From Trematomus loennbergii (lineage: Eukaryota; Chordata; Actinopteri; Perciformes; Nototheniidae), in contig JAAOOA010000033.1 of the NCBI GenBank assembly GCA_012861695.1, positions 17,895,934 through 17,959,933 on the forward strand: a stretch of DNA of 64,000 nucleotides, in the 5' to 3' direction. The notes under the pieces were generated by a model, which worked only from the letters and a program-made list of their open reading frames with translations, did not search any database and was not told the origin of the DNA. Positions 2,820-36,600 of the stretch are shown here, piece after piece. The position numbers were made by a program, and so were the translations under genes. Every line of letters begins with the position of its first letter. Positions within the stretch are counted from its first letter, which is position 1.

Positions 2820-5800
2820 ATGAAGCACCATCACCAAAATCAAGGCCATCGTCATCATCAAAAGTTACTTCAGTCAGATTACAATGAAAGCCCTGAGTAA
2901 GTCAGTTTTTTTTAACTGTAAATTGCCTTTCCTTATGTATAAATTATGTGATTAATATTAGACTGAACTATGATGTGTAAACATTTACCTTTTATTTTAT
3001 TTGTTTTGGGTCAATAGTGCATTATGAGGGCATTCATAGTGAAATATAATCTACTCATAATGCTTTACTCATAATCAAATAATATACTTTATCAACGAAC
3101 ATTGTAATTTAAATGTCTAATTCACTTTATTTATATTGCACCATTCAAACATATTACCAAAGTGCTTTCACTTAAAAATACACAAAGAGCAGTACTTTAG
3201 TAAATCTACTTAGTTACTTTACACCACTGATGATAAGTGATTATTATGTCTGAAAAGGCATTTACTTTACTGACCATCAGCAATTAAATGTTATGAGGAA
3301 GGATGCACAATTATGGATGCATACGTGTTTACTTCCTTATTACAGTTGATTGGTGTGTAACTAGTCGAAAGCATCCGTGAGACCCTTATGTAGTTCATTC
3401 AATAAGTCACATCAATGATTTTTATTTGACATATCCTCGTTTTGGTATCCCTGTAAGTCTTTATAACATGTATTTACACGTGTTTTCTTTTTAAAATAGC
3501 ACCCAATCAACAGCAGAGGACAGCATTTCACTGATCATCCGCCCGACCATCAGCGTCATGAAGACAAGACTCAACATCATCACCATCACAAACACAACCA
3601 TCGTCGTGCTTCTCTTTCAGAAACCTCACTGAGTTCCTCCTCTGGTTCCTCCTCATCCTCATCCTCTTCTTCATCTTCTTTATCTTCATCATCATCATCA
3701 TCATCATCAACATCTACACCCTCCTCCTCTTCTCCCTCTTCCTCCTCCCCTTCCTTTTCTTCCTCCTCTTCAAAATCTTCCTCTTCCACTAGCCTGTCCT
3801 CTGACACTAGCAGTAAGTGTTCAGACAAACATCAAATTAAGAAGCCCCAGCATTCACAGTCCTGCACTGACATTTCCAGGAAGTATTTGGAAGGTGACGA
3901 CACAGCCCCTTTGATAGATAAAGAGGGCATCAAAACAGGCTCTCTGCCAAACAAAGAAAGGATCAAGACAAGTCATCTCACAGTGGCACCCAAGGCACTC
4001 TTAAGAAGAAACAGAGGACTACAAAAGGCTTAGGAAAAGATGGGAGTTTCCGCAAAGCAAAATCAATGGAGGCTCTCACTAGACCCAAAAAGAGTTTGTA
4101 CGGAAATGAAGATGGAAATGAACATGATGGGAGAAAAGGTGAAGCCACGAAGAATGTAATGAAGGAAAAAAAGGATTTCTCTGCCTTTCTGAATGAGATC
4201 ACTCGACAGGTGCTCAGCCCTATGAGACTCAGCACTCTTGGGGTTAAAGATGCCAAAAAAAACTACAGTCCAGGACATGTCTCTGTTAGATCAAGTAGGG
4301 CGTCCAAACCTGAGAAACATAAACAGCCGAGGAGTCGGCTTGCCAGTAGAACATCAGTTACCTCCAGCAAGTTCTCCCATACCAGCAAGCACTCCTCTCG
4401 TCATTCTCACTCTCAAGAACATCAACGACACCACTCTACAGACTCACCTCTTAACCTGAGTCGCTCCCAATCACCGTCTAGTGAGCACTACCATCACCGT
4501 CACCAAGGACACCATCACAGTTCTAGTCATCATCATCATCACCATGGTAAATGCAACACCCATAGACATCACCATCATCACAAAACCCACCACAACACAA
4601 GTCATCACCATGGTGATCATGATCACTCATCCCGTCACCATCACTATGGTGACCATCATCACAGGGACCATTACAGCCCAAACCCTAGAGAGAATCACAG
4701 TGCGATTCTTCAACCTCACCGGGGCAAACATCGTAGCCCGTCTAGTCGTCATCACCATGGCCACCACCGTGACCATGCTCATCACCACCAACACAGTTCA
4801 AGTCGCCATTACCATACCAACCACCCCAACATTAAACACCCTACAAAATCAGGTCACCATGGAGATCACCACAGTAAATCTAATTGGCACCACCATAGAG
4901 ACGACCACAGCAAAGTTAATCAGCGTCACCATGGAGACCACCACAGTGAATTGCATCAGGATCACCAAGGAGACCACATCAGTGATTCAAATCCCGATCA
5001 CCATGGAGACCACCACAGTGAAGCAAACCAGCTTTCCCATAGAAACCATCACATTGAATCGCATCAGCATCACCATGGAGACCACAAGAGTTCGGGCCAT
5101 CTGCATCACCATGGAGACCACCACAGTGAATCCCATCACCATGAAGACCACCACAGTGAATCACATCTGCGTCACCATGGAGACAACAACAGTGAACTTC
5201 ATCACCATGGAGACCTCCCCAATGAATCCCATCACCATGGAGACCAGCACAGTGAATCACATCCACGTCACCATGGAGAACATAACAGCAAAACTATTCC
5301 GCATCACCATGGAGACCATCACAGCACAACTCTTCCGCGTCACCATGGAGACCATCACACCAAAACTCTTCCGCATGACCATGGAGACCATCACAGCACA
5401 ACTCCTCCGCGTCAGCATGGAGACCATCACAGTAAAACTCTTCCGCATCACCAAGAAGACCATCTCAGCAAAACTCTTCCGCAACACCATGGAGACCATC
5501 ACACCAAAACTCTTCCGCATGACCATGGAGACCATCACAGCACAACTCTTCCGCGTCAGCATGGAGACCATCACAGTAAAACTCTTCCGCATCACCAAGG
5601 AGACCATCTCAGCAAAACTCTTCCACAACACCATGGAGACCATCACAACAAAATTCTTCCACATCACCATGGAGACCATCACAGTGAATCTCATCAGCAT
5701 CACCAGGAAGACCACCACAGTGAATCAAATCACCATGGAGACCACCAAAGTGAATTGCATCACCATGGAGATCACCACAGTGAATCACATCACCACGTAG

Positions 5801-8800
5801 ACCACCACCACAGTGAATCACATCACCACGGAGACCGCCACAGTGAATCACATCTGCATCACCATGGAGACCAACATAGTTCTGGCCCTCTGCATCACCA
5901 TGGAGACCAGAACAGTGAATCCCATCACCATGGAGACCACCACAGTTCAGGCCATCTACATCATGGAGACCATCCAAATCCATCACATCCACATCACCAT
6001 GGAGACCACCACAATGAATCGCATCACCATGGAGACCACCACAGTACTGACCATCCCCATCACCATGGAGACCACCACAGTGAATTGCATCCACATCACC
6101 ATGGAGACCACCACAATGAATCACATCCGCATCACCATGGAGACCACCACAGTGAATTGCATCCACATCACCATGAAGACCACCACAGTGAATTGCATCC
6201 ACATCACCATGGAGACCACCACAATGAATCACATCCGCATCACCATGGAGACCACCACAGTACTGGCCATCCCCATCACCATGGAAACCACCACAGTGAA
6301 TTGCATCCCCATCATAATGGAGACCACCACAATAAATCCCATCCGCATCACCATGGAGACCAGCACAGTGCAGGACATCTACATCACCATGGAGATCACC
6401 ACAGTGAATCGCATCAGCATCACCATGTTGATTACCATAGCACAAGGCATAACCAAGGACATCACCCTGAATCACATCTCAACCATCCCCACTCCAAAAA
6501 AAAGATCTTGACCATGATGATCTTAATGATCCTGATGATCACAACGCTCATTTAGAGCGGCATTCTGCTGGCAGCCCAGCTCTCTCCAGCATTGCAGATT
6601 TACCCAGGAGTACTAGCAGCCCCTCCAGTCAGGATGAGGAACAGACAAGCTGCACTGGCTCATCGTTACATAAAGTATGACATTCACTTGGGTTAAACAT
6701 ATACTCATTAATTAAATTCCCTATAACAGTATTTCCATAAAGTAATTATTGGTAAATCAATAGTTCCTTGTGTTATACATGCTTGATTAAATTCTTATAT
6801 AATAATGTTCCACTCATTTGCTTGTTTATTGATTTGGGCACCAGTGTGCATGTAACCGTGAACTCTAGATTCAAGTTAAATTACAGAACAATAGATTGGT
6901 TATCATGTACAAACCAATGGTAATCATAATTGACATTTTCACATTTCTTTAAATGTATTCTTTTGTCATGATCAATAATATTTCTGATTGTAATATTTAA
7001 AGTTTTATTTTTTCCTTTCACGCAGGAAAAGAAACATGGACTGGGTAAAATCATGTAAGTGCGTTATAGTTATTTTGGGATTGTGAGCTGTGATTGGTTA
7101 GCTGGCCAGCTCTGTTGTGATTGGTCAAGCACTTAGAGATGTCCCGCCCCTTAGCCTATCACGCACAATATGTTGGAGCCCTAACCAATATTAGCATGAG
7201 TGATGTCACTATGTTACAGAAGTAAACAAAGGAGTCCAATGGAGGCGTTTCAGGAAGGGGGGGAGTGTGTGGGAGAGAAACACTTTGCGATTTTAGCCTT
7301 TCCAGACCATTTACATGCACACAAACCGATATTACACAGGAAAGGGAAAACCCCAAAAGGTTCAAATTCAAATAGGGCCCCTTTAAGAATTATTAAATTA
7401 ATCCATCAATTGCTCATTCACATTTTCCTCAGTTGGGATTCTCTTTTGTGAAACTGTCCTGATAGGATCCTACAGGAGCAGAACGAAGGTCTGCATAAGA
7501 CTTTGCTGAAGACCGCAGTGAGGATGGAGTGTTTAGAAGAGGAATTCATGAGCAGCCAGAAGCTTTTGGAGGCAGAACTTCAGAGGACACGTATGGAGCT
7601 TAGCACCATTACAGAGAAGTTTGGGAGGTAATGAATGCGCAGAAAACACATTTTGTTCTTCTGATTTTAACCTCCTTCGCTCCCGACACATAATTCATAT
7701 ATACTATACATCAGTCATCTTGGTATTTTTTCTTAAGGGAAGGAGGTCGTTTGTAGTACAAAAAATTACTTTGATTATTTCTCACTATGTTATTTCTATG
7801 GTGCCAAACACTTGACACTGCTTAATTAGCACACTATCAGTGTGTAGACGGTTTGGGGTTCCACAAATTATATTTAATAAGCTTAATAAATTAACCAAAA
7901 ACATGAAGTTGGGCTCATGCAGCTCCCTTCAATAACATGTAGTTGCAATATATTTGTCCAAACAATGGAAATATATGCAATTTCAGAGATCTAAAAGAGT
8001 TAACATTCTAATAAAAGTGAATAAGACTTACAAAGCCACCCATCATCCGTTTTCCTAAAAAAAACCTAACATGTGTGTATACTGCAATCTATTGTTGAGT
8101 AACTTTTTTCTGTCTTTCTGTACATCATTTCAGACTACATGAAAACTGCTCCTCAACACAACAGACTAATAGTGTTCTAGAGAATAAGCTTCAGTCAGCG
8201 GTAAGATTGGAATACTTTCTATGCTTCTTGTGCGTGAGCTTAAGTATTTAGAATCATCAAAATGGTTGTAAAACATGTCAAAGTTCCTGGACAATTCTTG
8301 GGAGGGGACGTTGTAACGTACATTACCCCCTTACTAATGACCTGTGACAACCGTGCTTCCTGTGCTCTCTCTGTCAGGCTCAGGGTATGGAAGGAGAACG
8401 TGAGAGGTTGAACCGGCGTATTTCTGCACTGACGGAGCACCTCGCTGATGCAAAATTTGCCAACAGTGTGGAAAAATGCAATGTAAGATCTTTACCTCAG
8501 TAAATATACATAGTGAAAAAATATGTTGCCTCTGCATTATTTAATCAATACAAATCTATCTGCGATCTCTACTTGATGAAGATAACTTCTGTGCTCCACA
8601 ACCCTGAACTCTAATTCAGTTAGGTGATGCCATGAATCAGGTGGTTTCTCCTATCACCCCCCCTCCAGCTGAGTTCATGGACATCCATGACTACGACAAC
8701 ACCAACCCTGGAGGGCAGGATCAATGTTTGGGGCCAGTTCCAGAGGAGGAAGAATCTGACTGGTCAGAGATAGGAGATGATACCCCACGATTTGTAATGA

Positions 8801-9354
8801 CAGGATCCAACAGAGGTCAGGTATGGAGACACCAGGATGCAGATATGGACAAAGACAGCGAGTCAGGTGGTGAGGAAATCCTCAGACGTCACTGTGCGCG
8901 CCAAATGCAGATACCTCATCTCCAGTTCACCATCCACAATGAGAATCTGTCTGAAGCTTTGACAGGTGAAGGCACTTACAGGATCACCACCAGTCCAAAC
9001 GTTGGCTCCGCCATCCTGATACGGTCTGCTAGCCTTGAGGAAATCCCACTGGCACGCCATCATATGCAGAAGGAGCTAAGGGGTACGGAGGCCATGATGG
9101 ACCTCCACCACCAAGGGGGCGAGGCCGTCGAAGATTTAGATAATGAGATCATTCATCACTGGAGAACCAGCAACGAGAGGGACGTGGCTGTTGTGAGGCC
9201 GTCAGAGGCAGATCTAGCCGGCCTGCAGTCAGCAGAGCGGATGCTCAACCACTTCATAGGTGGACCGCAGGCTGGAGTAGAGCAGGGGCAGGGCAGGGCC
9301 GAGGTGCACGCCTGGACAGACGAGGGGATAAAAGCAGAGCGAACAAAGCTGTGA
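2820..9354 (+). CDS. BEGAIN/TJAP1-like coiled-coil protein with giant His-rich repeat
   Basis: I rebuild seven coding exons: 2820-2896, 3514-6674, 7026-7054, 7466-7627, 8134-8200, 8378-8482 and 8620-9354. All have GT-AG borders and compatible phases, giving about 1,445 residues if two single-base gaps (within 3922-4030 and at 6496-6503) are allowed for. Domains in order: a His-rich start, a poly-Ser tract (about 3620-3800), a basic linker, 45-50 HHGDHHS-type units (4600-6470), an acidic/Ser segment, a coiled coil (7466-8482), and an acidic C-terminal exon with no recognised domain. The coiled coil resembles TJAP1 and BEGAIN, scaffold proteins of tight junctions and synapses, in spacing and motifs such as QxTNxxLExKL. 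The usual C-terminal family signature is missing, so this is a divergent paralogue. The His tract suggests divalent-metal binding (inference). The start is tentative: ATG 2820 is the first in-frame Met and overlaps the stop of a 21-codon upstream ORF (2758-2823). The acceptor at 3513 was chosen over the one at 3499 because only it keeps the frame. Confidence 0.72.
4600..6470 (+). repeat. Coding tandem repeat, His-Gly-Asp-His units
   Basis: This is a near-continuous tandem array of 24- to 36-bp units built around CATCACCATGGAGACCACCA, translated as HHHGDHH plus a variable Ser/Glu/Thr/Leu/Pro spacer. All unit lengths are multiples of three, so the frame is kept. Few codons in any frame can become a stop, and this is why long open frames also appear in a second forward frame (4481-5800) and on the minus strand (5609-6475). 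Those are shadows. Spacer classes group regionally: SESH units early, TKTLP/STTLP units in the middle, and NESHP/SELHP units late. This suggests local unit amplification. Confidence 0.9.
5344..5631 (+). repeat. 144-bp higher-order repeat, two copies
   Basis: Within the His-rich array a block of four 36-bp units (5344-5487) is followed directly by a second copy (5488-5631). Comparing them base by base I count three differences in 144 positions, against much greater divergence between neighbouring units. This is a recent in-frame duplication of 48 residues. Confidence 0.9.
7070..7387 (+). mobile_element. GGGGCCCT-type MITE copy 1
   Basis: The region in the intron between coding exons 3 and 4 of the His-rich gene ends in AGGGCCCCTTTAAG. 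That end is the reverse complement of the left end (AAAGGGGCCCT) of the copy at 25147. It shares GTGGGAGAGAAAC, CAGACCATTTACATGCAC and GGAAAGGGAAAACCC with the copy at 59290. It also carries ATTGGT motifs and a GATGTCCCGCCCC segment. It is a non-autonomous, fish-type interspersed element. Confidence 0.65.
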
Positions 9355-11540
9355 CAGAAACATGAAGGCCCTGTTCACTGTGTCAAAACATATAGTACTT
9401 TTAGCTATATATTTATTAGTAAAGTTCAATTAAGCTCTTTCTTTCACGGGTTCAGTGGTTCTGCCCCGCTAATTAACATGTGTTTTGATTCAACTTAACC
9501 TTTTAATTAAAACATGTTTTAGAGGAGCTCCCCCCACAGCTTTAGGACTTCCTTAAAGAGACAGCCCCTAAAAATGAGTGTTAAGAGACCAGAGGGTGAA
9601 TGGAGGTGTATTCAGGCTTGCATCGTTAAAGAAATAACATGTAATTTGAACACTAAAGCATGATAAAATGTTCCCTTAAAAATGCTAAATACAAGATGTA
9701 ACCCCCATGTCCCCTTTACCTCCTTTGGGTTCCTCATTTGTTTCTCAAAAAATATTTTAAATAAGATAGACAATTGTATTACAGCGTATAAATGCAACCC
9801 CTATTCATGACTGTACTTTTCTGTAACTTGAAAAATCCCTTTAGATTTAGTCATTTGATGAAACCTTTTATTTTTTTAGTATAATCATCGATACAAGCAT
9901 GTCGTTTCATCTCTTTAATCTGTTTGCTTTTTGCATGTGACATTATGTAATCATAAAATATTTTCTTCGTTTGTAGGTAGCCTCAATTATGCATTGTTGA
10001 ATGCTATATAAATATATATACTTCAAGTAATCTAAAACAAAAAGAAAATCCAGTGCTTTCTTGTTAATCCATTTGTTGTTGTCTTAGCGTGTACTATATA
10101 ACAAAATGTAAACTTATAAATATAAAATACCTTTAAATATGTGTATATGCAAAACTTATTTCCTCAGGTTACATTCATTCGCCTTTTAAAATAAATTCTT
10201 GCAAATAAACACATTTTACAAGCTTGTGTAAATGTCATCCATGTACCATGGTCAATGTAACATCTTATAAACAAAATGAAGAATCAATTAAACATAATGT
10301 CAGCTGTTTGTTTTATTTTAAATCAACTTTCTTTGGAAAGTTTGTCTTGATAAATACATAGAATGATAGAAGATGGACAACAGAGTGCTGCAAGGATGAT
10401 GTACTTTGTTGGCTAACTTAGTTTAGAACAGGGGTCGGCAACCCCTGGCACGTGTGCCACCATTGGCACGCGTGCAGCGAGGCTCCCCCCGCCCTCCAGT
10501 TGACAGTTCACGAACGTCGGCACACTAATCAGATTTTATTTTTTAAATGGCACTTCATATCAAAAAGGTTGCCGACCCCTGGTTTAGAACAACACTTGAC
10601 CATGATCGCATGACTTCACGTCATCTCCGCTAAGCTAAAGTTGGCCACTTGTTTAGAACCAACATTTTTTTAAATCACTTACAATTCTGCTTGTGGTTTG
10701 TAAAAGAAACTGGCATTGTACGGCCGGGATCAGTTTCAGGGTGTCGAAAAAAGCTTCCTCATGCTGTCTCGATTCTGCTTGAAACTTCCCTAAATTTAGC
10801 AAAGAGTCATTAACATTTCATCATTGTTAAACATGTTTGCTTACCATTGACACTTCTTCTTTACTTTTAACTCTTAAGGATTCACAAATAACTATATGAA
10901 ACAAATAACATTTTAAAATAAAGTATGAATACAGGATATCATATAATATATTGTCTTTTTTTTTATATGAAATATGTAACATTAATAACAAATGAATTCC
11001 AGATCCATTTAAAATTGTGTCATGAAGCTATGTGTAACACAGGTAATATATGTATAGATATACTGTATATCCATCTTCCTGTCAGGTTGGATTTGTTTTG
11101 TCCTCCATGTCCCTCTGTGTGTGTGATGGGTGCTGAGCAGACAATGGCCTGGATTCAGAGACAAGTTTAATTGGATAGGTAGGTATTAGTGGTAAGAAGC
11201 TCCCTGCATCAAGGTGCACCAAATCCAGTATGCCAAATCCACTGTGTGGTACACGGTGGTCAGTGGAGATAACTGGACTTTTTCAGCACTTTTTGGGGAG
11301 ACATTAAAAGGTGAATTGTCATGCTGTGAAATATGTTTTATATTGGAGATGCACCACTTCTGAAGCTTTAAAACGTTACTCTCCAAGGATTTGCTTTATA
11401 ACATCTTACTTTTTTTGAGAAATCCATCAGAAAACTATTTTCCATGTGTTCTTTGAGTTTATTTAGTGTGTGTATTTAGTGTTGAACTTAGCTTTTCCAG
11501 CCTCAGTGCCCTGCATCTGACCTCTCCTTCTTCCTCGCAG
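9355..11540 (+). other. 3' UTR of the His-rich gene and intergenic spacer
   Basis: AT-rich sequence follows the stop at 9352-9354. Canonical AATAAA signals at about 10190 and 10204 are good candidates for the 3' end of the transcript. The only clear element is the hAT-type MITE at 10429-10581. A pyrimidine-rich tract ending in CGCAG at 11540 looks like the acceptor of a rom1 5' UTR exon. No other gene is seen. Confidence 0.55.
10429..10581. mobile_element. hAT-type MITE with 8-bp target duplication
   Basis: The 153-bp element begins CAGGGGTCGGCAACC and ends with the exact reverse complement GGTTGCCGACCCCTG, a 15-bp perfect terminal inverted repeat. The flanks carry an identical 8-bp duplication, GTTTAGAA, at 10421-10428 and 10582-10589. 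The 8-bp duplication and the CAGGGGTCGGCAACC-type terminus are hallmarks of the hAT superfamily. The element is far too short to encode a transposase. Confidence 0.93.
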
Positions 11541-11627: not shown

Positions 11628-14600
11628 ATGGTGGTAATGAAGATGAAGTTCCCCTTTCAGAAAAGGGTGAAGCTAGCCCAGGGACTGTGGCTTCTCTCCT
11701 GGTGTGCCACAGTGGCCGGGGCCATCACCTTCACCCTGGGCTGCATCCTCAAGACGGAGCTCCGCAGGAGGGCAGAGGTAATCAAGTTTTACATTTAAAG
11801 ACTATAATTCTAAAGGGAGTTATCAACCAAATACAAAAATCAGTAGAGTAATTACTTATGGTTTAATTGTTAAAGTTATCGCAAGTAATCCCACTTTGTT
11901 ACTGATATTCGGGGAAAAAACGACACGCCAAGTTGGTCTGATTATATTTTTGACAGAGAACACAGATAACCAGTTACAGTTATTCAGTACATACTGTATC
12001 TACAGTGAGGAACAGCAGTTTTGTGATACAGTGACTATTTTCATGAATAACCTCAAGATACCCTCTGTGCCTGTTTTACCTTTAAACTGTTAGAATTTAA
12101 AACATGACATTGCGTAAAAGTGTCTTATGGGATACATTAAATATAATATACTGTCCAAGAAATGTCCTTGATGGAGACTAACAAGTGGTAAAAATACCTG
12201 TGACCCACTTTGGATTCTGACTCATAATTTGAAAGCTGGCTTTGTCACTCTCAGTCAGCCTAACCCCTACTCCTGAATGCTGTCATCCTAATTTGGTATT
12301 AATAACAAACCTACATAGTTTTGTTTTGCTTATTGCTAATATTAATTATTTGCAGCCTCAAAAACATAATCTTTGCACAACTATGCATTTGCAACTGTGT
12401 TTTTTGCATTTTTTGCCCCAAAATAATTTTTCTAAATCATAAGAATTTAGTGTCAAGAAAGGGACTTTTTGATCTTCTTTGATTGATGTATGCTTTGAAA
12501 AGCTGAGGGTGTGATGGCTGTCTGTTTGCATGATTGTGTAAGTGCGGGTAAATTAATTAATTACAGAATCCATGAAGCTTATATAATTGTTCTCATATTA
12601 CAATGTATATTGCAATGCATTGTAGTTTACACTTAATTTTATCTTATGATTTGTAGTAAAGATATTTAGTAAGAATGAGGATAAGAGAAGTCTGAATATT
12701 TTATAAATGACATGTAACATAAAGCTTTAGTTGTAAAGACAAATATGTCTCAAGTCTGGTAGAACTTTGTGTTTTATTGTTGTATTTTAGGGGACATTTT
12801 TGGGAATTTCAGGCAAATAGCACCCTTTATCTCTATCAGGTTCTATAGTTTGAAACACCAGCACGTTTTCATAGCTTTGTATAAAGACTCTGTTTAATTA
12901 TTAGTAAGGCTGATGTTTCCTTACAGCAAACAAATGAAATTTGTTTTGTTAACATTATTGTCTGACTTATTTACAGGTTATGGATAACTCAGACGTACAT
13001 GTTGTGCCCAACACTCTCATGATTGTTGGTCTGGCCTCTTTGGGTATCAACATCTTTGCTTCAAAGATCTGTCAGGATGCTCTGGATGCCGAGAGATTTC
13101 CTCGCTGGAAGAACATGCTAAAGCCATATTTTGCCGTCTCTTGCTTCTTCACTGTCCTCATGCTGCTTGCTGTCATCATGAGCTATGCAATGAAGGGCAG
13201 TCTGGAGTCATCTCTGAAGGTCGGCCTGAAGAACGGCATCCGCTTCTACAAGGACACAGACACCCCGGGCCGCTGCTTCCAGAAACAGAACATCGACCGC
13301 CTGCAGATGGAGTTTCAGTGTTGTGGAAACAATGACTTCAGGGACTGGTTTGAGGTCCAGTGGATCAGCAACCGCTACCTTGATTTCAGCTCCAAGGAAG
13401 TGAAAGAGTAAGTTTAGCACAATATTATATAGTGCTGCACAGTTGTAGGCCAACCCGGAAGTAAGCATTACACTGTTTTCCTTGACAAAAAAACTATGGG
13501 ATTTTTCTTTTGGATTTTTAATTATTGGAGAAAATAAGCTATGAGGCAGACACATGTTTAGGAGATTATTTTCTCAAATGAACATTTTTTTCATTTGGTA
13601 AATGTCCGAAGTAAAAAGCATTAGCCTAAAAACATACACAATCATATGACTACAACATCAATACCCCTTAGGTGAGGTTCCCTGTCTGTCCAAATTAAAT
13701 GTGAAAATCACTTAAACTTGTGTTGAGCACAGACCTTATTTCAGGCATCCAACCAAGAAAAACACAAACAATGAAAAGAAAAAAACGATGTCTTCGTGAC
13801 AAGGGAACCAGAAGTGCAAAAATGCTGACTCATTCTTGGGTTTTACAACTCTTATAGAGTTCGGTGTAATGGGTTTACCATTTGTGGACGTTTATCGAAA
13901 AACAATATGTTAGATTACTGTAGGCCTACTGTATATATGAGCTCTGAAAAACCACTTTCATTTTTTTTCTTAGCCGCATCAAGAGCAACGTGGATGGTCG
14001 TTACTTGCTGGATGGAGTCCCATTCAGTTGCTGTAACCCCAGCTCTCCACGGCCATGCATCCAGTATCAACTGACAAACAACTCAGCTCACTTCAACTAT
14101 GAATACCAAACGGAGGAACTCAACCTGTACCTCCGAGGCTGCAGAGAGGCCCTGGTCAGCTACTTCATGGGCTTGATGAACACCATTGGGGCTGGAGTAC
14201 TGTCAGTCTTCCTCTTGCAGGTATACAACACAATAATTACAGTGGTTTTCACAGGGATTTCAGGCAAAGTTTGGGGTGAGCCTTTCAATTTGGAGTATCG
14301 TTGAGGAATACAACTGATTCCTAGGCATTGGTACAGCAACCAAGTTGTTTTAAAACCAGTATGCAACATTGTTTTATGTTTTTAATAACAATCTTGTTGG
14401 ATAGTAAACCTCAATTTATTCCTCACTTATTCTAGGGTCTGATGTTTACCGGTACATCTATGCATATCCATCAATTACTACTGCAATTTGGATCCTTGAT
14501 GATGCTCTCTAATGGAATCTGCTTGACAACTCTTTTCCCCCATTTCTTCCCCTTCCTCTCTCCCAGGGCTCTGTGCTGGTGAGCTTGCGGTTCCTGCAGA

Positions 14601-20300: not shown

Positions 20301-23300
20301 CTTGGTTTCTTAAAGCAACAGTTAGATCTTTTATTAGAGTCATTTTCCAGATGAGAAGATGCATACTACTAAATGTTGGTTTTCAGACACAGCCTAACTG
20401 TTTCCACCTGCTTCCAATGTTTCTGCTTAGCTAGACTGATCTCCTGGTTATAGCTTCATATTGATCTTACAGGCCTAACAGTCATATCTTCTTGTTAATC
20501 TATTCATTTAAATAAATAAGCCAATTTAAACTAACCCTAACTACTGTACACAGGATATCTTTAGTTGGCATTGAACGTATCGAAAAACTAAATTATTTTT
20601 AAAAACTACATTTAATTTAGGTAAGGTACGTTTATTTATATAGCACATTTTCAGAGGCAATTCAAAGTGCTTTACATCATCATTAACACTTAACAAGAAG
20701 ACAACAGAAAGGAACACAATAAATAAACATAATGGAATAACAGATTCATAAAAACCATGCATACAACATTGTAAATACGGTAGGTGCTAAAACAAGTTAA
20801 AAGACTTCTGGGTAAGCAGATTAAAAAAAGTTGTGTTTTAAGTCGTGACTTAAAAGAACTCAGCGTTGGTGAAGACCTCAGGTTTTCTGGAAGTTTGTTC
20901 CATTTGTGGGGAGCATAAAAACTAAAAGCAGCTTCGGCGTGTTTGGTTCTGAGCCGGGGAACAATGAGTAAGCCCGCCCCCGATGATCTCGGAGCTCTGG
21001 GTGGCTCGTAACAGAGCAGCATGTCGGACATATATTGGGGTCCCAAACCATTTAATGCTTTATAAGTTAGCAATACAATTTTAAAAATCGATTCTGTAAG
21101 CTACTGGTAGCCAGTGCAGAGATCTGAGTACTGGGGTGATGTGTTCTACTCTTTTTGATTTGGTCAGGACTCTGGCAGCAGCGTTCTGGATTAGTTGCAG
21201 TTTAAGTGATTTTTTACAGAGACCTGTAAATACACTGTTACAGTACTCAAAAACAAATGCGTGAACTAGTTTTTCAAGGTCTGGTTGAGACATGAATATT
21301 CTAAGTCTGGCTATGTTTTTCAAGTGATAGTATGCTGTGGGATTTGAAATTGAGGTCGGGGTCCAGAACTACGCCTAGATTTCTCACCTTTTCCGATGTA
21401 TTTAGCAGTAGGGCTTCTAGTTTAGCGCTTACTTCAGCCCGTTCCTCCCTTATGGCACCAAAGATAATGGTCTCGGTTAAGTTTTTGTTTAATTGTAGGA
21501 AATTGTGGCTCATCCAGCTGCTGATTTGTTCCATGCAGTTGGTGAGGGATTGTAATGGTCCGTAGTCGCTAGGCTTTATTGTAATGTATAACTGAGTGTC
21601 ATTCGCATATTTGTGGTACGACATTTTGTTTACTTTTAGGACTCTAATTTAAGAGTATAAATGCTGATTTCTAGTAGGATAATCAACCACACAGACTTCT
21701 TTCTGTGTGGGCTCAGCACTTGCTTGAATGGACATTTTTTGAAGTTGTCAGCTGACCTTTTAGGAAATGAAGAAGTAAGTACTGGCCCCTTCTGCCATTT
21801 TGTCAAATGGTGAGAGGTCGCCTCGATTCAGCTTAACTAGAACTAGAATAAAATGGACACTGTGAAAAAGGGCAAGAAGCAAACATTTGATAAAGTCATA
21901 AAATAAGCTTCCTAAAGTACAATCAGCAACTACATGTTGCAATTCAAAGAAAATCCATAGGAATTATGAAGAAAATGTTTAAGGAGGTGTTGGTTTTTTA
22001 AATGCTGATAATAATGTGCTACTGTAGCATTATGATTTGTAGTTGCTACAGTAAGTACGAGAATGCACAGAAGGACATTTTTGTTTTATAATAAACAATA
22101 AAATAATAAACATGTCTGAATGGATATTTATGATGTCTCATGTATCTGCTCACAGTATGAATGTCTGAGTTTGTGCATGTGGTTTGTCACTGTTTGGTCT
22201 TTCTTCTCTGACCATGAAACTAAGCGTCATGTGCCAAGCTTTCCCAACAATAGAGGAAATGAGAGACTTGTCTTCTAAACAATGTCTCGTATTTCATTCC
22301 AATAAAATCCTTAAATTACAATATGATTGGACTATTGATAGCCATTATCTACTGATGGAGACATGCTTTGTATTATAAGTACTGGTTGCAGATACTACTT
22401 TAGAAGAAGAGGTCATTTTCAGAAGAACTCTTGGTAATCATCAGGGGATTTGTTTTTATGTCCATGAAGAAACAAAGCTCAATAGAAAGACAGTTATTGC
22501 GAAAGCAGCACGTTTTGACTTGACATCAGGGTCATGATAAAAACACACAAAAAAACAAATAAATGTAACAAGCTTGAATGAAAAACAGTCAATTGAGTGA
22601 TTTAGGAGAGAAATGTATCTCTATATTGAGGTTTACAACACCTGTAGGAGTGAACAAAACGGATTATTTCAGGAGAAATTGATAGTAATAATGGCACTAT
22701 ACAGTTGCATATGATCGTCTTGCATTGATGCAATTCGTAGTTTTTTTCATCTTACATACAGAGCAACCAAAGCATTGTGAAACACACGATTAAACAGTAC
22801 ATTTTGATAAATAATCTGAATATAATTGAATGTTATCTTAAAGGTGGGGTAGGTAAGTTTGAGAAACCGGCTCGAGATACACTTTTTGTTATATTCCATG
22901 GAATGCTCTTAACATCCCGATGGCAATGAATATCTTAAGTGCTTTGACAAAAATGTCATCTGTGGAAGCCGTAGTACTGTAAAAATAACTGGATGGCCTA
23001 CCTGCCTGTCAGCCTTCCATCTGTGCACAAACTTATCTCGTGCCCTCATTGGTCATGTGCACGTTCGTGTGTGTTGGAGGAGGGGCTCTATAAGGAAGTG
23101 GCAGATTTTCTCCGGTTGTGTATTTTCAAATTCTAGCGCACTCGAGCTGGTTTCTCCAAAATTACCTACCCCACCTTTAACCCCACATTTGCACAAAAAA
23201 TATGCACTTCAAACTTTTCTCTGCTTTCCACAGAGGGAAGAAGCTGTCCTCTTTCCTGCCCGTACATGTTGCCATGGGCAGTGGGGGGTTGCTCTCCACT

Positions 23301-33600: not shown

Positions 33601-36600
33601 AGAGATCGTGATCCGTGCAGCCACGGAGCGAGTGAAGCAGTACCTGGCCGCCCTGCAGAGCTTCTACATGGACAGCCTGACGGACGTGAGGCAGGCCCTG
33701 GCCACCCCTCGGCTCTCTGTGGCCAGTGCTTCAGTGGGCGGAAGGGGGGCCTTCTGGGAGAGATGGTCCGAACAGCCTGCCAGAGCTGCTCTCCTCCCTG
33801 TCGGCCTCTATTCTCAACCAGATTAAATCAGTGTTGGCATCAGTGCATCTCTTCACAGCTAAGGACATTACATTCTCCAACAAGCCGTATTTTAAGGTGA
33901 ATAGTTTATTTCTGTTTAGCTGTTTTGAATTTCGGTTGTATGAGGAGCTTATCCTTAGTCAGTGTATATGGCGGTCGGAACACCTTCAGTAACGAGAAAC
34001 AGACAAGAGTTATGGCACAGAAGAAGAGCAATGTACTACTAGAGACCAGGACATCAGCAAAACATATTTGAGCCATGTAAAAAAAGGCCCACCTATATGA
34101 CTTAGTCTACACTACACTTTGAAAATGTTCATTGCTTTATAGCCGTCAGACAGCCCTTTCTGATGGGGAACTGAAGCCGCTATCTATGTATCCGTCACGA
34201 CTCCTTGAATAAAACAGTCATCTTACATTGCAGAACAAGCAACCTGCTCTATCCACCGCTGCCTCCATCGGTTGGTTGGTTTTTGTTCTAATGGGATGTC
34301 GGTGAACACGTACTAATCACAGTCACACAATTACATCGCACTAACGAGGCAGTGGTGGACCGACAACTCCTTCGTTCTGCTAGGAAAAACTGTTTATTTA
34401 GACGGGTTCTTGTGGCTTGAGTGAGAGCGGATAAAAGACAGAGATAAAAGCTTCAGTTATCAGTCAGAAAGGGCTATCTGAAGGCAAGGTATAGCTAATC
34501 AAATATTGAAAACATATAGCGTACATTTAAACTGATATTGAGTTTTATTTAGGTGGCTAAATTGTTTTGCCTTGTTCAGCTTCTGTGCCGGTACTGCTGT
34601 TTGTTTTTCCAAACTTGGGCCTTCCTGACCACCATCTACTGTAGGAAATACACTGACTTTACACAAGTACCTCATGCAACCCCACTTCAAAACATCCAAA
34701 CCATCCCTTTAACAGCTTTCCCCCCCAATAAGTATTTTCTTCCCAATCTTGAGATCGACAGCTGTGTGTCTTCTCCTCTTAGGGTGAGTTCTGCAGCCAG
34801 GGTGTGCGTGAGAGCCTGGTGGTGAGCTTTATAAAGTTTATTTGCCAGTCTTCTCGCCAGTTCTGTGAGAGTGCAGGCGACAAAGGCAGTTCGACTCCTC
34901 CGGCCCTGCTGTTGCTGCTGTCTCGCCTCTGCCTGGACTATGAAACCTCCACTATCTCCTACATCCTCACTCTCACAGACGAACAGTTCCTTGTGCAGGT
35001 AAATATCTTGAGACTTTGAAAATGCAGCGGCATGCACAAAAGCCCACAGTACACTGTCAGACTAAAGTATTTTACTTTGTGTTCTTTCTTGCCTACTTAA
35101 CTGCCATCTAAATACATGTTTTCTTCTTTGTGTACTTTCTCAGCACCACAGTCCCGTAACACCCGTCACAACTTTATGTACAGAAGCAAGGGAGGCAGCA
35201 CAGAAACTGCTGAACCACTATGTGAAGGTAGGTTTTCACCTACTTACTTTTCTTACTGAGGGGGAAATGGAGACATCAATGCAGGAAATATTCAACATAA
35301 CCTTTTTCTCACACGTGTGTATATTATCTTGTTTGTCTTTGCAGGTTCAGGGCCTGATCATCTCCCAAATGTTAAGAAAGAGCGTTGAAACACGAGACTG
35401 GGTCAACACCATCGAGCCACGAAACGTCCGAGCTGTGATGAAGAGAGTCGTAGAGGACACCACCTCCATAGATGTGCAGGTAATGGTTTACAATATTTTC
35501 ATCTGTGTTACGTACTCAAGTCCACTCTTTATACTTTCTTCAGTGTGTGCGCTGTACAAACCTTCTCTGCTCTTCTACAGGTCGGTCTTCTGTATGAAGA
35601 AGGAGTGAGGAAAGCCCACAGCAGTGACTCCAGCAAGAGGACCTTCTCTGTGTACAGCAGCTCCAGGCAGCAGGTTCGCTACGCTGCCAGCTACACTCCC
35701 AGGTAAACAAGCTGCACATACACACGTTTAAAAAAGAAAAAATGCATGATAACAATTTCGGTTTTCTTTGCATTCTTATATATCAAGATCAGACTCTGAC
35801 ATTGTTTTTTTTTTTTGTAATCACTGGGAATCATGACACTTAGATGGACCCTTATTTTGATCCATTTTCAAGCTCAATTATAATTACAAACATGTTTTTA
35901 AAAATAATGCAGCGTATAAATGTACAAAACATACAATTGATATGCTCTCTTCAAAGTCATCAGATTTAATTCACAGAAACTTTATTAAAATCCATTGTTC
36001 CAACAATCATCAACTCTGGTTTGAGACTTTGAAAGAGAGACTCAAAATACAACAGAAAGGCAAGCTCATCTACTAGCTTTAGGACTTGAGTGTATAGCCT
36101 AGTTTAAGCGGGTTTCCTGTGTTTAAAAACAGCATATACCTGATTATTTTAGTGTTAAAGTGGTATTAGATTCCATATAGTTTTCTTATTTCTTTGGTAT
36201 GAGAATAATGCATACTTTGGATGGAGAATATGTAAATATCCTGAATCTAAAGGCAAAATCTATCACTAATCTTGACACTGTCACAATTACATATATCCAC
36301 CGTTAATGCGTATGCATTCTTCCCTCCGTATATGAGTGGATTGGTAAGATAAAAGAAGCAGGCAGCTACTCTGTATTACATCCTACACTTTCACCCCTGG
36401 GGTAAATTGTTACTGAGTTGTCTTCAATCATAAGAAAAGGGTGATTGTTTTAATTGTGGATGCACTTGAGTAATTAATTTGTGTCTGTCTGCAGTGCTCC
36501 CATGGATACTAATCTGCTGAGCAACATACACAAGCTGTTTTCTGAGAGGATTGACATCTTCAGCTCAGTGGAGTTCAACAAGGTGAGTGCAGGTCTTTGT

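What the first reader, a model, noticed from the sequence alone, without database searches (positions are those of the whole stretch)
2820..9354. BEGAIN/TJAP1-type coiled coil fused to a ~50-unit His-rich repeat
Phase-consistent splicing joins a Ser-rich and hugely His-rich exon (3514-6674) to coiled-coil exons that resemble TJAP1/BEGAIN. The known family members carry no such metal-binding-like tract. The combination may be a lineage-specific scaffold with Zn/Cu/Ni-binding capacity, next to a photoreceptor gene.
Basis: partly seen in the sequence, partly recalled or inferred. Interest (0 to 1): 0.78.

Follow-up and report, generated by a model that had tools for sequence, protein, structure and literature searches.

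The report
Teleost BEGAIN-like scaffold with histidine array
This looks like the Antarctic-fish copy of an unstudied gene found in many bony fishes, which encodes a long, mostly unfolded adaptor protein with a coiled coil and a large histidine-rich repeat; the combination is real and widespread, but in this assembly the repeat exon is broken by single missing letters that may be sequencing errors.

Summary
The combination is real, but it is neither new to this lineage nor one open frame here. The window gene is the ortholog of zebrafish si:dkey-273o13.3: coil and C-terminus match 120 proteins, best 97% identical to a Dissostichus eleginoides model. Database models from grouper, flounder, halibut, killifish, goby and sole carry Ser tract, a KSMEAL/FSAFLNEITRQ region, a His-rich linker, the coil and a C-terminal T-x-L in one frame. 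The coil is homologous to two BEGAIN-like genes of the same genome (hhalign 98.6%, score 87.8; best of 100 shuffled controls 30.6), with shared exon phases.

Corrections: exon 2 most likely starts at 3500, not 3514, and holds three single-base frame breaks (runs 3526-3528, 3920-3922, 6496-6503), so the literal sequence does not encode the fusion. A VPS51-like exon nearby is also frame-broken, which favours assembly error over decay. A paralog without the array lies before another peripherin gene.

Best reading: a dimeric, PDZ-ligand-bearing adaptor with a multivalent, possibly metal- or pH-sensitive linker. Function is untested; no paper in the searched library holds the gene name.

The parts
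2820..2896 (+). coding exon 1 from the in-frame ATG (His-rich N-terminus MKHHHQNQGH)
   Evidence: donor GTAAGT; with upstream in-frame codons 35 of 53 residues identical to P0122
3500..6674 (+). exon 2 (3175 nt): start of DTQSTAEDS stretch, Ser tract, HSQSCTDIS, KSMEAL, FSAFLNEITRQ region, His array, HSAGSP tail; three frames
   Evidence: acceptor TAG at 3497-3499 and frames; Ser part 87 of 130 aligned positions identical to P0122, motif part 102 of 156
3526..3528 (+). frame break 1 (T run, -1 relative to relatives)
3920..3922 (+). frame break 2 (A run, -1)
   Evidence: LI(DK) then RGHQNRLSAKQ, where P0122 reads on into RGYQNRLSAKQ
4855..6427 (+). His-rich tandem array, period 36 bp, about 45 copies, unit like HHHGDHHSESHP
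6496..6503 (+). frame break 3 (A8 run, -1)
7026..7054 (+). exon 3 (29 nt), EKKHGLGKI
7466..7627 (+). exon 4, first half of the coiled coil (162 nt)
8134..8200 (+). exon 5, coiled coil (67 nt; same length in both BEGAIN-like genes and the C12 paralog)
8378..8482 (+). exon 6, end of the coiled coil (105 nt; 108 nt in the other three genes)
8620..9354 (+). exon 7, conserved C-terminus (PEEEESDWSE, IRSASLEEI) ending RTKL
12962..14256 (+). downstream neighbour: peripherin-2/ROM1-type tetraspanin (two exons matched; its N-terminal coding part was not mapped)

Best explanation
The gene is the ortholog (in what looks like a notothenioid fish) of teleost si:dkey-273o13.3, a paralog of BEGAIN. Its protein is a long, largely unfolded adaptor. 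Shown here: the domain order (Ser tract, one conserved helix, His array, coiled coil of about 108 residues, conserved C-terminus ending T-x-L), its presence in many teleosts, and the homology of the coil to BEGAIN-like genes. Inferred: the coil makes dimers, as reported for BEGAIN's N-terminal region; the T-x-L end docks on a PDZ protein; the FSAFLNEITRQ helix binds a further partner; the His array is a long multivalent linker that clusters the dimers, strengthened by Zn/Cu or by protonation of His, so that the protein condenses at a junction or synapse. The three frame breaks in exon 2 of this assembly are more likely homopolymer sequencing errors than decay of the gene.
For: Orthologs. Both parts in one frame in P0122, P0125, P0127, P0128, P0140, P0141. 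His-frame constraint among units. Coil homology; exon phases and lengths. Two confident helices in an otherwise disordered model of the eel relative. S/T-x-hydrophobic C-terminus in 162 of 168 collected proteins. A 1,690-nt contig coding 397 contiguous residues across exon 2 tail, exon 3 and coil, as spliced RNA would: P0025. A second frame-broken exon (VPS51-like) in the same window. BEGAIN homodimer and PSD-95 GK binding: PMC10716515, passages.
Against: No metal-binding, interaction or expression data. The linker is His-poor in some relatives (about 15% in several pipefish, 10.6% without an array in eel), so the array is not needed by all orthologs. Six of 29 measured relatives have much of the linker read in another frame. 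The units descend from each other, so the synonymous excess is not from independent events. The VPS51-like break is of the opposite sign (one base too many or two too few), so it does not show a deletion bias. Database models may have been frame-corrected by their makers, which I cannot see. The notothenioid models P0001-P0003 all lack the His exon.
Confidence: 0.5

Rival explanations
1. The array is a by-product of tandem-repeat slippage in a disordered linker. The protein works as a coil-plus-PDZ-ligand adaptor and the His content has no role of its own.
For: Linker length and His content vary widely, from 1.7% to 34.0% in 29 measured relatives (part of the low values are other-frame readings). 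The eel relative and the C12 paralog have no array.
Against: Excess of synonymous differences in the His frame alone, and His-rich linkers in 23 of 29 relatives.
Confidence: 0.27
2. The gene is decaying in this lineage: the frame breaks are real mutations and only a short coil form, or nothing, is made.
For: Three breaks plus a lost upstream start codon. The Eleginops, Dissostichus and Chaenocephalus models start at or after the exon 2 tail, and the Chaenocephalus one skips exon 4. The residue G in MECLGEEF, nearly invariant in A1, is E here.
Against: All three breaks are in homopolymer runs, protein similarity continues across each break, another exon in the window is frame-broken, and models of non-notothenioids also omit the His exon (for example P0004, P0005, P0008).
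Confidence: 0.15
3. The His runs send the protein to nuclear speckles rather than binding metal at a membrane.
For: Runs of 6 or more His suffice for speckle targeting of GFP (PMC2644819, abstract and passages); the window has one run of 6.
Against: Most units here are interrupted (HHHGDHH); 10 of 29 measured relatives have a longest run of 3 or less in the linker. The PDZ-ligand end and BEGAIN kinship point to membranes (inference).
Confidence: 0.05
4. The His exon and the coil exons belong to two genes.
For: Many database models begin just before or inside the coil, and the window's frame is broken.
Against: Relatives carry both in one frame. The junction product is conserved. The C12 paralog keeps motif region and coil in the same order and strand.
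Confidence: 0.03

Closest known systems
si:dkey-273o13.3 orthologs (database names include tight junction-associated protein 1, BEGAIN, filaggrin-2, repetin, hornerin, mucin-2, LIM domain-containing protein A)
   Same: Same gene: same domain order, exon junction product and C-terminal T-x-L.
   Different: Frame broken three times in this assembly; array long (linker 33% His, 842 residues in the model) compared with the relatives measured.
BEGAIN
   Same: Coil homologous over 102 ungapped columns; exon 5 of 67 nt and phase-0 exon 6.
   Different: The two BEGAIN-like copies end in RKDSLTKAQLYGTLLN rather than T-x-L, and no motif region or His array was found in the 30 kb fetched around each (tblastn with the N part found nothing convincing). 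The name BEGAIN for these loci is recalled from that ending, not given by a call.
TJAP1 (Pilt)
   Same: Some orthologs carry this name in databases.
   Different: No Pilt match in any scan of this family; the own-genome search for PF15453 rang nowhere, controls included, so kinship is not tested.
Teleost-specific T/H-rich low-complexity proteins (PMC9470157, passages)
   Same: Teleost His-containing repeats proposed to scaffold assemblies.
   Different: That cluster is Thr/His repeats; here the unit is HHHGDHHS. Whether this gene is in the cluster was not tested.

Membership tests
si:dkey-273o13.3 orthologs | coil + C-terminus similar over their whole length | tested here: met
   69% to 97% identity at 95-100% coverage for the best full-coverage hits
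si:dkey-273o13.3 orthologs | N-terminal Ser tract and FSAFLNEITRQ region | tested here: met
   Present across frame breaks: 87 of 130 and 102 of 156 aligned positions identical to P0122
si:dkey-273o13.3 orthologs | one open frame from N-terminus to coil | tested here: not met
   Three -1 breaks in exon 2; cause (assembly or mutation) not testable here
BEGAIN/TJAP1 superfamily | homologous coiled coil | tested here: met
   hhalign 98.57%, score 87.8, against a maximum of 30.6 in 100 heptad-block shuffles; 14 of 16 chosen rows used. BEGAIN name of the targets recalled
BEGAIN/TJAP1 superfamily | same exon lengths and phases in the coil | tested here: met
   Exon 5 is 67 nt in 4 of 4 genes; exon 6 is 105 nt here and 108 nt in 3 of 3 others
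TJAP1 proper | Pilt domain PF15453 | tested here: inconclusive
   No match in protein scans; genome search uninformative because its controls rang in 0 of 14
BEGAIN proper | binding to the PSD-95 GK domain | not testable with these tools
   Known for BEGAIN (PMC10716515, passages)
Filaggrin/hornerin/repetin (names given by databases) | S100-fused-type N-terminus | tested here: not met
   No such domain in Pfam scans of the window's long frames, of 11 family rows and of P0158; the names probably follow low-complexity similarity (inference)
Metal-binding His-rich proteins | measured Zn/Cu/Ni binding | not testable with these tools
   Composition only

The most novel reading that the evidence does not exclude
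Teleosts evolved a metal- or pH-switchable version of a BEGAIN-type scaffold: coil dimers with PDZ-docking tails are clustered by a long His array that senses Zn at photoreceptor or other retinal membranes, in a gene that has stayed beside peripherin genes since an ancient duplication.
Probability: 0.1. Interest if true: 0.75.

Novelty: new variant of a known kind. Interest (0 to 1): 0.42.

Why it matters
An uncharacterised gene present in many teleosts is hidden under false names (filaggrin-2, repetin, mucin-2 and the like), apparently because of its low-complexity exon. Recognising it as a BEGAIN paralog with a T-x-L end and a His array gives a testable scaffold hypothesis. The array-free paralog is a natural control, and both copies lie just before a peripherin gene. 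It also warns that frame breaks in such exons can mislead annotation of fish genomes.

Tried and rejected
Rejected: two separate genes. Rejected: a lineage-specific fusion. Rejected as unnecessary: programmed -1 frameshifting at the A8 run; it would need three shifts, and relatives read through in one frame. Rejected as gene product: the 'ITMETTTV' frame in several database models, which is the +1 reading of the same kind of array. Led nowhere: Pfam and PDB for the coil and C-terminus (generic coiled-coil matches only, or none); PF15453 in the own genome (nothing rang, its 14 controls included); papers for 'dkey-273o13.3' (0 papers), TJAP1 with BEGAIN or teleost, TJAP1 with photoreceptor, His-rich/zinc terms: listings only. 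A PDB search for the VPS51-like exon found nothing, so that name is recalled. A second haplotype copy of exon 2 in the own genome was asked for and never answered; the last exon has one copy. I ran no second fold and no fold search, since 851 of 1037 residues of the model are below pLDDT 50.

Limits: one search scored only the 7,994 candidates sharing most words and listed 120 of 159 hits; the named ones listed were teleosts. In one search, P0160 could not be measured and the coil of P0146 was placed too early, so its value is for part of its linker. In one search the Ser part was read in the wrong frame; one search corrects it. Notebook entry 1 puts the second break too far downstream; one search places it. 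In one search the C66 and C12 coil matches are weak on their own (E 0.06 and 0.855); they rest.

Full report
WHAT IS THERE. The window is the stretch C33:17895934-17959933 of a 1.21-Gb genome in 3,566 contigs. The best protein match, 97% to Dissostichus eleginoides, points to a notothenioid fish (inference). The gene runs on the + strand with coding exons 2820-2896, 3500-6674, 7026-7054, 7466-7627, 8134-8200, 8378-8482 and 8620-9354; the six introns have GT donors and AG acceptors.

THE HIS ARRAY. Tandem Repeats Finder gives 4855-6427, period 36, 45.2 copies. In the His frame 261 of 665 residues (4501-6495) are His and there is no stop; the +1 frame has one stop and the +2 frame 55, so openness alone is weak evidence. 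Differences among 48 unit cores are synonymous more often than expected in the His frame (47 against 34.8; 0 of 1000 simulations), and not in the other two frames. Units descend from each other, so these differences are not independent.

FRAME BREAKS. Ser part, motif + His part and tail lie in three successive frames, each shifted by -1. Comparison with relatives shows a further break near the start and moves the acceptor to 3500. The breaks lie in runs at 3526-3528, 3920-3922 and 6496-6503. The upstream start codon of several relatives has no in-frame counterpart, while ATG 2820 is in frame. A VPS51-like exon (name recalled) in the same window changes frame at a G6 run, 33744-33749, in the opposite direction. 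Residual assembly indels are therefore the simplest cause, but reads are needed.

RELATIVES. The coil + C-terminus query (355 aa) found 120 proteins with E up to 1e-3, and a query aimed at longer proteins found 38. Those from grouper (P0122), flounder (P0125), halibut (P0127), killifish (P0128), goby (P0140) and sole (P0141) carry Ser tract, motif region, His linker, coil and C-terminus in one frame. Of the 168 proteins collected in three searches, 30 hold the F[SN]AFL[NDS]EI motif and 29 could be measured. In 23 of 29 the linker is at least 10% His, in 8 of 29 at least 25%; 6 of 29 contain long stretches read in the other open frame. The eel protein has the motif and coil but no array. A contig of 1,690 nt codes for 397 contiguous residues across exon 2 tail, exon 3 and coil (P0025), which a spliced RNA would explain. 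An 11-row profile search listed 120 of 159 hits; the named ones are teleosts.

FAMILY. In the same genome the coil matches loci on C14 (E 9.8e-4), C66 (E 0.06) and C12 (E 0.855). C14 and C66 look like BEGAIN (name recalled from their C-terminal end). Profile comparison gives 98.57% probability over 102 ungapped columns, score 87.8, against at most 30.6 in 100 heptad-block shuffles. Exon 5 has 67 nt in all four genes; exon 6 has 105 nt here and 108 nt in the other three. The C12 paralog has the motif region (tblastn of the eel N part, E 1.6e-21) and coil but no array in the 50 kb looked at, and its last coding base lies 4.0 kb before the first matched exon of another peripherin gene on the same strand; in the window that distance is 3.6 kb. 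Both neighbours match human peripherin-2 better than ROM1. TJAP1 could not be tested.

HOW IT PROBABLY WORKS. A model of the eel protein shows confident helices at 363-403 (with a short gap) and 625-732 in an otherwise disordered chain (mean pLDDT 45.5). The last residues fit S/T-x-hydrophobic in 162 of 168 collected proteins, a PDZ-ligand pattern (established knowledge). BEGAIN forms a homodimer through its N-terminal region and binds the PSD-95 GK domain through its C-terminal region (PMC10716515, passages). By analogy this protein should be a dimeric adaptor. The array would then be a multivalent linker whose stickiness depends on metal or pH; that step is inference. Runs of six or more His can also send a protein to nuclear speckles (PMC2644819, abstract and passages), a rival reading. 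Teleost-specific T/H-rich repeats have been proposed to scaffold assemblies (PMC9470157, passages), which gives a wider frame for such tracts.

VERDICT. The fusion is real and found in many teleosts. No paper in the library holds the gene name; searches by related names gave listings in which I saw no study of it. It is a new variant of a known scaffold family rather than a new kind of system.

Noticed in passing
33744-33749: A VPS51-like exon (name recalled) changes reading frame at a G6 run, of opposite sign to the breaks in the finding.
   Followed up: partly
L010:2680-3290 (C12:13878680-13879290): The last exon of the C12 paralog also seems to change frame near L010:3150.
   Followed up: no
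P0126, P0130, P0132, P0145, P0149, P0157: Database models of other fish read much of the linker in the 'ITMETTTV'-like frame, so frame breaks or mispredictions in this exon occur beyond this genome.
   Followed up: partly
L008-L012 (C12:13871891-13885002): A paralog of the finding's gene without the array, followed on the same strand by a second peripherin-type gene: an old tandem linkage kept in two copies.
   Followed up: partly
P0003 (Chaenocephalus aceratus): The icefish model skips exon 4 and joins pieces read in other frames around the coil, which may mean a disrupted coil there.
   Followed up: no
770-960; 10430-10590; 20690-21648 (minus): Repeat-like stretches: a tRNA-derived SINE-like stretch, a short element with inverted ends, and reverse-transcriptase-like frames (kinds recalled).
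   Followed up: no
17148-45630: Neighbours look like frmd8 and vps51 (recalled) and a tm7sf2-type sterol reductase (ERG4_ERG24, E 1e-20), an order resembling human 11q13 (recalled).
   Followed up: partly
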